Shown one piece after another: positions 28,682-32,512 of a stretch of 46,706 bases of DNA. The notes beneath the pieces were generated by a model. The model ran no database searches. It saw only the letters and a program-made list of their open reading frames with translations, and was not told where the DNA came from. The stretch's first letter is position 1, and each line of letters starts with the position of its first letter. Both the position numbers and the translations under genes were made by a program. This DNA comes from Myxococcales bacterium (GTDB lineage: Bacteria > Myxococcota_A > Polyangia > Polyangiales > Polyangiaceae): assembly GCA_016794325.1 (NCBI GenBank), contig JAEUKG010000018.1, positions 1-46,706 of the forward strand. The letters run 5' to 3'.

Positions 28682-29947
28682 GTGACCGAAGAAGAACGCG
28701 ACGACGCCCCCGCCGGCCCGCCGAGCGCTCGCACTCGCCTGAGCGCCGAGGAGGTCGCGGACTATCTCGTGGAGGTCGGCGCGACCCTCGCCGCGTACGG
28801 CTGCCCGTCGTACCGCCTCGAGGACGTGGTGAAGGCGATCGCCGAGGTGGAGGGCTACACCGCGGCGCCGTTCGCGATGCCGACGGGGTTCTTCGTCAGC
28901 GTCGCGAGCCCTCGGCACCCCGCGCCGATCCAGCGCATGTCGCGCGTCATCGATCGCGGGGTGAACCTCGGGCGGCTCGCCGAGGTCGACGCCATCTTCA
29001 ACGACGTCGTCGACAAGAAGATCGCGATCGCCGAGGCGCGGCGCCGCCTCGTCGCGCTCGAGAAGCGCCCGTCGGGCTACGCGCGCTGGCACAAGTGGCT
29101 CGCCATCGCCACGGTGGGCGGCGCGTCGGGCGTGTTCTTCGGCGGTGGCGCGGTCGAAGCGGTCGCGGGGGCGTGCGCGGGGCTGTGCGTCAACGCCATC
29201 GCGCGGCTGCTCGCCCGCCGCGAGTCGGGGAGCTTCCTCGTGGATTTCTTCGGCGGGCTCGTCGCGGCGCTCGTCGCGGGGGCGACGGCGCGCTTCGCCC
29301 GCGGCTCGTCCGAGGTCGTCGTCCTCGCCGGCGTGATCGGCCTCGTCCCCGGGATGACGCTCACCACCGGCCTCGCCGAGCTCGCGCGCAAGAGCCTGGT
29401 GTCGGGCGCGGCGCGGCTGATGGACGCGGTCGTCACGCTCCTGTTCTTGGTGTTCGGCATCGCGCTCGCGGTGGGCCTCGGCACGCTCGTCGGGAAGGCT
29501 CCGGCGGTCGACCCCGCCCGCGTCCCGCTCGGGCCGCACTTCCAGGCCATCGCGCTACTCGCCTCGTCGGCCGCGTTCGCGGTGCTCTTCTCGATGCCGC
29601 GCCGGTACTTCTGGGCGGCGATGGCGTCGGGCGCGACCGGCTACGCGGTCACCCAGGTCGGCCGGCACCTGCCGCCCCACCTCGGCGCGTTCGCGGCGGC
29701 GCTCGGCGTGTGCCTCTTCGCGAACCTCCTCGCGCGGTGGACGAAGAGGCCCGCCCAGATCTTCCAGCTCCCGGGGATGATGCTGCTCGTGCCCGGGAGC
29801 TTCGGCTTCCTCGGCTTCGGCGACTTCTTGCGCGGCGACGTCGTCGCGGGCGCCTCGAAGACCTTCCAGATGCTCCTCATCGCGGGGGCGCTCGTCGTCG
29901 GGGTCCTCCTCGCGAACCTCGTCCTCCCCGCGCGCAAGCTCCTGTGA
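28682..29947 (+). CDS. ThrE-type threonine/serine exporter-family membrane protein
   Basis: 421 residues from GTG 28682. Residues about 20-130 are cytosolic (LSAEEVADYLVEVGATLAAYGCPSYRLEDVV; PTGFFVSV), followed by about ten hydrophobic helices. Motifs of the ThrE family are present: GGGAVEAVAGACAGLCVN, VIGLVPGMTLTTGLAELAR, and in the second half LPGMMLLVPGSFGFLGFGDFL. Both halves (ThrE and ThrE_2 parts) are fused in one protein, as in actinobacterial ThrE. Expected to export Thr/Ser or small peptides by proton gradient. Follows the vWA gene by 33 bases. Confidence 0.88.
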   Translation: MTEEERDDAPAGPPSARTRLSAEEVADYLVEVGATLAAYGCPSYRLEDVVKAIAEVEGYTAAPFAMPTGFFVSVASPRHPAPIQRMSRVIDRGVNLGRLAEVDAIFNDVVDKKIAIAEARRRLVALEKRPSGYARWHKWLAIATVGGASGVFFGGGAVEAVAGACAGLCVNAIARLLARRESGSFLVDFFGGLVAALVAGATARFARGSSEVVVLAGVIGLVPGMTLTTGLAELARKSLVSGAARLMDAVVTLLFLVFGIALAVGLGTLVGKAPAVDPARVPLGPHFQAIALLASSAAFAVLFSMPRRYFWAAMASGATGYAVTQVGRHLPPHLGAFAAALGVCLFANLLARWTKRPAQIFQLPGMMLLVPGSFGFLGFGDFLRGDVVAGASKTFQMLLIAGALVVGVLLANLVLPARKLL

Positions 29948-30003
29948 CTCGACCGGGGTGACGGAAGTCCAGACGTACGGCTGCCGGCAGAAGTGGCACG
30001 TCG

Positions 30004-30020
30004 CGCCATCGAAGATGGCG
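30004..30020 (+). terminator. Hairpin after the ThrE gene, weak terminator candidate
   Basis: CGCCATC-GAA-GATGGCG is a perfect 7-base stem with a 3-base loop, 56 bases past the ThrE stop. No T-run follows, so intrinsic termination is doubtful. It lies at the point where base composition changes to lower G+C. Confidence 0.3.
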
Positions 30021-30080
30021 GACGCATACTTCCGCACGATAGGTGTCGGTCCCACCACAACAACACGCATAGGAGATCGT

Positions 30081-30398
30081 ATGTCCGCGTCGAACTACAG
30101 TCGCTCCATTTCCGCGCGCGTACGGGAGGTTGTCGGCATGCTGGTGAGAGGGGAATACTTGGAGTTGGAAGAACTGACCAACGCCATGCGCCTTCGTGCT
30201 AGCGACATCCAGGCTGGGGTTGAGGAGTATGGTCGCAGGCTCGTCCTACCGCCGAACAGTGCGTACGACAACATTGATGCCATCGCGGTGGTGGGAAGCA
30301 GCCCAAGCGCATATTCCATTAGATTCCGGCTGTACACTGTCTGGTCGTCGCTGTGGCAGTCGGTCGAGAGGTCACCGGTGAAATACCAGCGCGACTGA
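30081..30398 (+). CDS. Small hypothetical protein, paralog 1 of a DUF7668-like pair, C-terminus divergent
   Basis: 105 residues. ATG 30081 has AGGAG at 30071-30075. Residues 1-84 match the protein starting at 30641: RGEYLELEELTNAMRLRASDIQ against SGSYADLEQLTGAKRLRARDIE, then YGRRLVLPPNSAYDNIDAIAVVGS against YGRTLVMPPETAYDNIDVIPIRGS, and IRFRLYT against VRFRLYT. After RFRLYT similarity stops abruptly and an unrelated 20-residue tail follows, so the C-terminal strand segment is lost. The fold resembles what I remember of DUF7668, with low certainty. G+C is well below the genome norm. Confidence 0.6.
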   Translation: MSASNYSRSISARVREVVGMLVRGEYLELEELTNAMRLRASDIQAGVEEYGRRLVLPPNSAYDNIDAIAVVGSSPSAYSIRFRLYTVWSSLWQSVERSPVKYQRD

Positions 30399-30586
30399 TC
30401 CCACGTGCACGGCAGATTCATTGCCCTGAAGGGATGCGCTACTTTCTGGAGGTTGATCTCGTACGCGAGGCGATTGAGGTGTGGATCAAGTGGAGAAACG
30501 GCGCAACTCCCACACTCGACGAGGCGGTTGCGGCGGTCATCTACTATGGCGAACAGGACGCGTATCTCCCGTGCGAACCGAGCTGA
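30353..30586 (+). CDS. Small hypothetical protein in the low-G+C islet
   Basis: 77 residues from GTG 30353 (overlapping the previous gene by 46 bases in another frame) or 50 residues from ATG 30434. The last 50 residues look protein-like and acidic: MRYFLEVDLVREAIEVWIKW, TPTLDEAVAAVIYYGEQDAY. No family is recognised. It may be the 3' remnant of a gene whose 5' part was replaced by paralog 1. Confidence that this is expressed is low. Confidence 0.4.
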   Translation: MAVGREVTGEIPARLIPRARQIHCPEGMRYFLEVDLVREAIEVWIKWRNGATPTLDEAVAAVIYYGEQDAYLPCEPS

Positions 30587-30640
30587 GATGCGAGCGTTCA
30601 GCCATCGCGGTTGCGGCGGCGGGCGTGGTGAGGTGTCGAG

Positions 30641-31105
30641 TTGACGACGACCCAATACAATAGCGCAGTAGCCCATTCCGTGCGGCATGTTGCCCGTCTG
30701 TTGGCGAGCGGGAGCTATGCGGACCTGGAACAGTTGACGGGTGCGAAGCGTCTTCGTGCACGGGATATCGAGGGGGAGGTGAACGAATACGGCCGGACAC
30801 TCGTGATGCCGCCGGAGACTGCGTACGACAACATTGATGTCATCCCTATACGGGGTAGCGAGCCTCAAGCCTATTCTGTGAGGTTTCGATTGTACACGAA
30901 GGAGGAAGGTCAGTCCGATCTGGAGGTCCAACTGACATTGATGGATCGGGCACCGGAGAGGAAATGGGCATTCAGTTGGACGGGATACTGGTTGCCTAGT
31001 GCGCTGGCGATACCATGGAGCCGTTTGCAGCCCTCCGGCAGGGCGAGCTCCAAAGCCGGTTCGGAGCACGTCGACAGCAGCGACAGGCGGCCGTATCCGC
31101 CGTGA
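30641..31105 (+). CDS. Small hypothetical protein, paralog 2 of the DUF7668-like pair, probable 3' frameshift
   Basis: 154 residues as read from TTG 30641. Residues 1-105 parallel paralog 1 and go on through LYTKEEGQSDLEVQLTLMDR. Near 30955-30965 the frame appears to slip: the +2 alternative frame gives EEMGIQLDGILVA followed by TAG at 30997-30999, a natural short C-terminus, whereas the read frame runs on with a low-complexity Ser/Arg/Pro tail to 31105. One missing base would explain this. Lower G+C than flanking genes. Possibly a former immunity-type or regulatory small protein; function unknown. Confidence 0.55.
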   Translation: MTTTQYNSAVAHSVRHVARLLASGSYADLEQLTGAKRLRARDIEGEVNEYGRTLVMPPETAYDNIDVIPIRGSEPQAYSVRFRLYTKEEGQSDLEVQLTLMDRAPERKWAFSWTGYWLPSALAIPWSRLQPSGRASSKAGSEHVDSSDRRPYPP

Positions 31106-31111
31106 ATCCCC

Positions 31112-32512
<1,401 letters not shown>

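What the first reader, a model, noticed from the sequence alone, without database searches (positions are those of the whole stretch)
30081..31105. Low-G+C islet with two decaying paralogs and an orphan small ORF
Two tandem copies share about 84 residues (YDNIDxI, RFRLYT) but both lose the expected C-terminus: copy 1 by abrupt replacement, copy 2 by an apparent frameshift near 30960 just before an alternative ending QLDGILVA-stop. A third small ORF sits between. Composition is much less GC-rich than both sides. The pattern resembles turnover of orphan immunity or toxin-associated small genes.
Basis: partly seen in the sequence, partly recalled or inferred. Interest (0 to 1): 0.6.

Follow-up and report, generated by a model that had tools for sequence, protein, structure and literature searches.

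The report
Wreck of bacterial toxin-antidote gene array
A 1.2-kb foreign patch in a bacterial genome is the decayed remains of antidote (immunity) genes plus the last scrap of a DNA-cutting toxin they once guarded against; it is an ordinary kind of wreck, but it ties an unnamed protein family (DUF7668) to a toxin it probably neutralises.

Summary
Both copies belong to Pfam DUF7668. Copy 1 breaks off after RFRLYT; copy 2 loses its final strand by a frameshift. The 'third small ORF' is not an orphan: it is the C-terminal two-thirds of a DUF7716 gene, joined abruptly to copy 1. Intact relatives show what the pieces were. DUF7668 lies directly behind Rhs/Tox-SHH-type toxins in Pelagibius and Pseudomonas. 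DUF7716 lies directly behind Rhs/WHH toxins and is a tested immunity protein in Salmonella (PMC13224477). A Burkholderia glumae plasmid carries Rhs-WHH, DUF7716, displaced Tox-SHH-type tip and DUF7668 in one row. A relative has only 40 bp where the islet sits. So this is a decayed, detached orphan immunity array of polymorphic-toxin modules, a known kind. The useful by-product: DUF7668, named in no paper found here, is probably a Tox-SHH immunity protein with an NTF2-like fold.

The parts
28682..29947 (+). left flank: ThrE-type threonine/serine exporter, intact; its stop abuts the islet
   Evidence: Pfam ThrE E 7.7e-67, ThrE_2 3.2e-25
29981..30019 (+). possible upstream piece of the toxin scrap, in another frame, with the spacing expected of the toxin tail
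   Evidence: reached by 149 of 3000 shuffles, so weak alone
30021..30071 (+). C-terminal scrap (17 residues) of an Rhs Tox-SHH-type nuclease toxin
   Evidence: score 54.3, next best 22.0 among 93,312 frame positions of the window, 0 of 3000 shuffles; best window hit of a 4-sequence HMM that excludes the window, E 0.0035
30081..30398 (+). DUF7668 immunity gene copy 1, cut off after residue 86 (about 30338) and running out of frame into DUF7716 DNA
   Evidence: Pfam PF24705 35.9 bits, profile 2-70 of 100
30338..30586 (+). C-terminal two-thirds of a DUF7716 immunity gene, no N-terminus
   Evidence: Pfam PF24832 16 bits, below its cut-off of 26; HMM of four intact DUF7716 proteins finds it at E 1.5e-5, next window hit E 7.6
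30641..31105 (+). DUF7668 immunity gene copy 2, frame broken near its 3' end; the family's last strand continues in another frame to a stop at 30997-30999
   Evidence: Pfam PF24705 64.8 bits, profile 3-87; frames; nearest intact homologue L011
31112..32671 (-). right flank: serine/threonine protein kinase, intact, convergent with the left flank
   Evidence: Pfam Pkinase E 2.2e-37

Best explanation
The islet is the remnant of a horizontally acquired row of polymorphic-toxin C-terminal modules (toxin tip followed by its immunity gene), now detached from any Rhs gene and decaying. Shown: foreign composition; an empty site in a relative; a Tox-SHH-type toxin tail followed by the immunity-like family DUF7668; a breakpoint inside copy 1 that runs into the middle of a DUF7716 gene; a second DUF7668 with a broken frame. 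Inferred: the row arose as such rows do, by new toxin/immunity modules displacing older ones to the 3' side. A deletion then removed everything between the middle of DUF7668 copy 1 and the middle of DUF7716, including whatever toxin tip lay between them. When intact, DUF7668 would bind and block the Tox-SHH DNase, and DUF7716 the WHH DNase, in the cytoplasm. In this genome all three immunity genes look dead.
For: Pfam assignments. Toxin scrap. DUF7668 directly behind intact Rhs toxins with Tox-SHH-type tips in L055 and L060; L066 has a DUF7668 gene directly behind such a tail. Decayed tips of the same type upstream of complete DUF7668 genes in L058 and L050. DUF7716 directly behind Rhs toxins: L038, L039 and L040 show the layout, and WHH was detected in L038, the one of the three whose toxin was scanned with Pfam; also B. 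glumae L107/L109. Experimental neutralisation of an HNH/WHH DNase by a DUF7716 protein in Salmonella Tennessee (PMC13224477, abstract and passages). Rhs-WHH, DUF7716, displaced Tox-SHH-type tip, DUF7668 and DUF2750 in one row on NZ_CP100246.1. Empty site of 40 bp in G462 against 1164 bp here. Patchy distribution: DUF7668 in 9 of 144 genomes of the order and 9 of 377 of the phylum, DUF7716 in 3 of 144 and 2 of 377.
Against: The toxin scrap is only 17 clearly matched residues, most of them beyond the end of the Pfam Tox-SHH model, and carries no catalytic motif. No Rhs core lies next to the islet. No close full-length relative of the DUF7716 fragment was found (1 of 144 and 1 of 377 genomes, the window's own each time). 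Only 4 of the 24 non-window DUF7668 loci scored have such a tail upstream, so part of the family may serve other toxins. The copy 2 frameshift could be an assembly error in this fragmented assembly (1300 contigs).
Confidence: 0.87

Rival explanations
1. The islet is an orphan immunity locus that still works: copy 2 is intact in the living strain, its frameshift being a sequencing or assembly error, and it protects the cell from Tox-SHH-type toxins of neighbours.
For: Copy 2 keeps 85 of 100 profile positions, and the family's last strand is still readable in another frame. Synonymous change exceeds nonsynonymous change between the copies (NG86 dN 0.36, dS 1.26), so they were under constraint for most of their history. 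[quoted passage not shown] coli EC93 (PMC3150448, passages).
Against: Its neighbours copy 1 and DUF7716 are broken by a rearrangement that no single-base error explains. Copy 2 has only a TTG start in the listed ORF.
Confidence: 0.2
2. The two copies are a local tandem duplication of one housekeeping small gene, unrelated to toxins.
For: The copies are each other's nearest relatives in the tree (support 83/50).
Against: They share only 53% identity; the region is foreign in composition; the toxin scrap lies in front of copy 1 and a different immunity family between the copies.
Confidence: 0.04
3. The islet is an assembly chimera or contamination.
For: Fragmented, incomplete assembly (1300 contigs, 88% complete); composition differs from the flanks.
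Against: ThrE, kinase and COX15 lie in the same order across the site in G462 and G138, so the flanks belong together. Foreign composition is expected of toxin/immunity modules; intact homologues are also lower in G+C than their surroundings (L055 gene 0.50 in a 0.66 locus, L029 gene 0.63 in 0.72).
Confidence: 0.04

Closest known systems
Orphan CT/immunity modules downstream of cdi and rhs loci (PMC3150448; passages read)
   Same: detached toxin C-terminal fragment followed by its immunity gene, several unrelated modules in one row
   Different: here no parent toxin gene is adjacent, the toxin fragment is reduced to its last residues, and the immunity genes are broken too
Immunity gene arrays formed by sequential effector displacement in Vibrio T6SS clusters (PMC5361080; passages read)
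   Same: toxin replaced, old immunity genes kept on the 3' side, including a shifted-back 3' end of an effector
   Different: there the immunity genes are kept and the array sits in a T6SS cluster; here it is decayed and sits between two ordinary genes
Heterogeneous polyimmunity loci (Zhang et al. 2012, PMC3482391; passages read)
   Same: unrelated immunity families in tandem, same strand, short spacing
   Different: genes here are not intact, and a toxin scrap is present
RhsA-HNHc / DUF7716 pair of Salmonella Tennessee (PMC13224477; abstract and passages read)
   Same: DUF7716 is the middle piece of the islet
   Different: only a fragment here, without its toxin
Imm-NTF2 immunity families (PMC3482391; passages read)
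   Same: the DUF7668 model has an NTF2-like fold
   Different: listed partners are Tox-NucA and Tox-JAB-2; Pfam did not match DUF7668 proteins to these families

Membership tests
DUF7668 (PF24705) | score above the curated cut-off of 27 bits | tested here: met
   copy 1 35.9 bits, copy 2 64.8 bits
DUF7668 (PF24705) | full-length domain with both C-terminal strands | tested here: not met
   copy 1 ends at profile position 70, copy 2 at 87 of 100; the model of an intact member has strands at residues 86-99 and 102-112
DUF7716 (PF24832) | score above the curated cut-off of 26 bits | tested here: not met
   16 bits over profile 55-101; described as a fragment only, homology supported by E 1.5e-5 with a separate HMM
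Tox-SHH toxin (PF15652) | SHH catalytic motif and HNH/EndoVII core | tested here: not met
   only the extreme C-terminal tail is left; the Pfam model finds none in the own genome
Orphan CT/immunity array | toxin C-terminal fragment directly upstream of its cognate immunity family | tested here: met
   with intact pairs in L055 and L060
Orphan CT/immunity array | lies downstream of a parent Rhs or CdiA gene | tested here: not met
   flanks are ThrE and a kinase; the five Rhs core matches of the genome are on other contigs. Hence described as a detached remnant, not a member
Polyimmunity locus | tandem immunity genes of unrelated families on one strand with short spacing | tested here: met
   DUF7668, DUF7716, DUF7668 within about 0.95 kb
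Polyimmunity locus | intact immunity genes | tested here: not met
   all three broken in sequence
NTF2-like fold | structural match over the whole domain | tested here: inconclusive
   VIA Z 9.1 to 7 against many NTF2-like chains over about 100 residues, but no Foldseek match at E <= 0.001

The most novel reading that the evidence does not exclude
DUF7668 is an undescribed NTF2-fold immunity family for Rhs Tox-SHH-type DNases whose toxins are repeatedly erased while the immunity gene and the last codons of the toxin in front of it are kept. Of the five DUF7668 genes found with such a tail (window copy 1, L050, L055, L058, L060), three have a dead toxin, and two of these three a complete DUF7668 gene. 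The kept toxin tail may be a functional leader, for instance carrying the immunity gene's translation start region, rather than an accident.
Probability: 0.3. Interest if true: 0.5.

Novelty: new member of a known kind. Interest (0 to 1): 0.36.

Why it matters
The islet is a snapshot of how bacteria lose toxin/immunity modules. More usefully, it led to a testable assignment for a family without function (DUF7668 against Tox-SHH-type DNases) and to two further neighbourhoods in which DUF7716 sits behind WHH nucleases, beyond the one published pair. It also shows that a few toxin codons left in front of a small unknown gene can reveal which toxin that gene once countered.

Tried and rejected
Rejected: phage origin or mobile element. 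Phage tblastn with an intact DUF7668 gave no match, there were no flanking repeats of the kind a transposon leaves, no Rfam match, and no PADLOC match beyond one chance-level hit (Cmr3, E 0.032). Close DNA relatives on plasmids: none. A toxin tail in front of copy 2 was looked for and not found (best score 8.3). Tox-SHH in the order by Pfam: 1 of 144 genomes, G122, with different downstream genes. Full-tail search of 144 genomes of the order gave only chance-level matches, in 7 (best E 9.3e-4, three stops inside). Copy 2 against solved structures by sequence: nothing up to E 5. The first genome-contig scan with copy 2 found nothing. B. plantarii L067 has a downstream gene that resembles DUF7668 by eye but matched no Pfam family, so it is not counted. 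The first tree had L060 read in a wrong frame and was replaced, in which L007, L008, L014, L062 and L067 were dropped. In one search the gap of L104 was computed from a wrong frame; one search gives 531 bp. Of the 12 other genomes with a ThrE match, 7 were fetched and 2 of these 7 keep the kinase next door. A note gives the identical run shared by the copies as 22 nt; read again it is 20 nt.

Full report
Setting. The window is a whole contig of a fragmented assembly (8.74 Mb, 1300 contigs, 88% complete). Two genomes placed in the same family have contigs whose length and match position agree with records named Myxococcales bacterium 68-20 and Myxococcales isolate NC_groundwater_1660, so the host is a member of the Myxococcota (inference). 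The islet lies between an intact ThrE exporter, stop at 29947, and the stop of a convergent protein kinase at 31112.

Observation. Composition drops from a mean of 71.1% (sd 2.5%) to 59.7% G+C over 29948-31111, and GC3 from 0.93-0.97 to 0.62-0.70. Copies 1 and 2 are DUF7668 proteins, 53% identical over 86 residues, with an identical 20-nt run at 30260-30279 and 30820-30839 (sequence). Copy 1 follows the family up to RFRLYT and then reads out of frame into other DNA. That other DNA, in its own frame, is the C-terminal part of a DUF7716 protein from about 30338 to the stop at 30586. A profile made from four intact DUF7716 proteins finds it at E 1.5e-5, with the next window hit at 7.6. Copy 2 follows the family to about profile position 87, and the last strand is then found in another frame. 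The nearest intact homologue, L011 from the same order, ends as expected and forms a supported clade with both copies (96/95).

Missing piece. In L055 (Pelagibius MAG) and L060 (Pseudomonas frederiksbergensis 38F7) the gene in front of DUF7668 is an Rhs protein. The tip of L055 matches Tox-SHH (E 1.4e-4, 23.0 bits, cut-off 22.7); that of L060 did not match the Pfam model but aligns with the L055 tip over its whole length. The two tips end alike, and the stretch just in front of copy 1 in the window has the same ending: 17 residues at 30021-30071 score 54.3 against the mean of three intact tails, the next best of 93,312 frame positions scores 22.0, and none of 3000 shuffles of the stretch reaches it (maximum 24.0). 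An HMM from four tips ranks the same place first in the window (E 0.0035, next at 2.2). A further 13 residues lie directly upstream in another frame with the expected spacing, but alone they are weak (149 of 3000 shuffles). The scrap lies mostly beyond the end of the Pfam Tox-SHH model, so it is called a toxin tail, not a Tox-SHH domain.

How general. One search scored the 600 nt (or what was held) upstream of 26 DUF7668 genes: 24 loci besides the two window copies, one of them (L012) with no upstream sequence and one (L008) with 96 nt. High scores came from window copy 1 (48.3), L055 (44.0), L058 (44.0), L060 (36.0) and L050 (24.0); all others were 15 or less. L055 and L060 served in the profile and were scored with themselves left out. 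L062 and L063 are near-identical and count as two rows. In L058 (Aquabacterium) and L050 (a lake Myxococcales MAG) the toxin is dead while DUF7668 is complete. A plasmid search with the L060 tip found 13 records, all Burkholderia or Paraburkholderia. I opened four of the 13: L066 and L107 have a DUF7668 gene right behind the tip, L108 has the same protein accession there as L107, and L067 has a gene there that matches no family. The other nine were not opened.

DUF7716. In G133, of the same family as the window genome, three loci carry a DUF7716 gene overlapping the end of a large Rhs gene. The Pfam scan of the one examined (L038) gives WHH at the tip (E 1.9e-5, 24.7 bits, just under the cut-off of 25.1). 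On B. glumae plasmid NZ_CP100246.1 the Rhs gene in front of DUF7716 has Colicin-DNase and WHH matches (E 1.5e-6 and 1.8e-4, the latter under its cut-off). A DUF7716 protein has been shown to neutralise an HNH/WHH Rhs DNase in Salmonella Tennessee by competition, co-expression and plasmid degradation assays (PMC13224477, abstract and passages). In G368 DUF7716 sits next to a gene with a weak SUKH-1 match (22.2 bits, cut-off 25.4).

The B. glumae row is the closest parallel: Rhs with WHH tip, DUF7716, an unannotated displaced Rhs tip of Tox-SHH type, DUF7668, DUF2750. The window islet holds the same three pieces (Tox-SHH-type tail, DUF7668, DUF7716) but no parent gene, and all are broken.

Insertion. 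In G462 ThrE and the kinase are 40 bp apart, with COX15 next, against 1164 bp in the window; in G138 the gap is 531 bp with a different open frame. So the site is variable, and the islet is best read as an insertion. No terminal repeats were found.

Mechanism. Step 1, acquisition of a row of toxin tips and immunity genes: inferred from composition, patchy distribution (9 of 144 and 9 of 377 genomes for DUF7668, 3 of 144 and 2 of 377 for DUF7716) and the parallel row. Step 2, displacement of older modules by newer ones: described elsewhere (PMC5361080, PMC3150448, passages), inferred here. Step 3, loss of the toxin body, a deletion from within copy 1 to within DUF7716, and a frame break in copy 2: read from the sequence, though the last could be an assembly error. 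DUF7668 as the Tox-SHH immunity protein rests on gene adjacency in the order toxin then immunity and on the usual logic of these systems; no binding or protection test has been done. Zhang et al. 2012 list SUKH, Imm11, Imm24, Imm30 and Imm55 for Tox-SHH (PMC3482391, passages), and DUF7668 is named in none of the papers searched (open-licence PMC papers only). The V2c/V3c pair of Agrobacterium is a tested Tox-SHH pair (PMC10902643, passages); whether V3c is a DUF7668 protein was not tested.

Structure. The L055 DUF7668 protein, modelled from 13 sequences, has mean pLDDT 92.9: helices followed by a sheet. VIA-align 2 puts many NTF2-like chains at Z 7 to 9 over about 100 residues, but Foldseek gives no match at E <= 0.001, so the fold is probable, not settled. 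The break in copy 1 removes the last two long strands and that in copy 2 the final one, which should prevent proper folding (inference).

Verdict. It is a wreck of a known kind of locus; the new part is the DUF7668 to Tox-SHH link.

Noticed in passing
L107 (NZ_CP100246.1 98535-100243): The displaced Tox-SHH-type Rhs tip between DUF7716 and DUF7668 carries no annotation in the record's gene table, although its neighbours do.
   Followed up: partly
L048 7099-11618 (G214): A DUF7668 gene lies at one end of a row of small genes of lower G+C on one strand, one of them DUF4265 and the others scanned without a Pfam match; it looks like a living orphan immunity row.
   Followed up: partly
L049 7127-10563 (G387): A DUF7668 match lies directly upstream of an Rhs gene rather than behind one.
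   Followed up: no
L106 1-2750 (G122): Intact Tox-SHH toxin followed by two tandem small genes that look similar to each other and not like DUF7668.
   Followed up: no
L104 2204-2734 (G138): The gap between ThrE and the kinase holds a different open frame, so this spot may take up foreign genes repeatedly.
   Followed up: no
L026 6180-6476 (G000:C124): A third DUF7668 gene of the same genome, of another subfamily, near a contig end; little of its upstream side is in the assembly.
   Followed up: partly
L081-L084 (G000:C744, C59, C527, C702): The genome's own Rhs proteins carry other C-terminal tips; none of the four read resembles the Tox-SHH-type tip by eye.
   Followed up: partly
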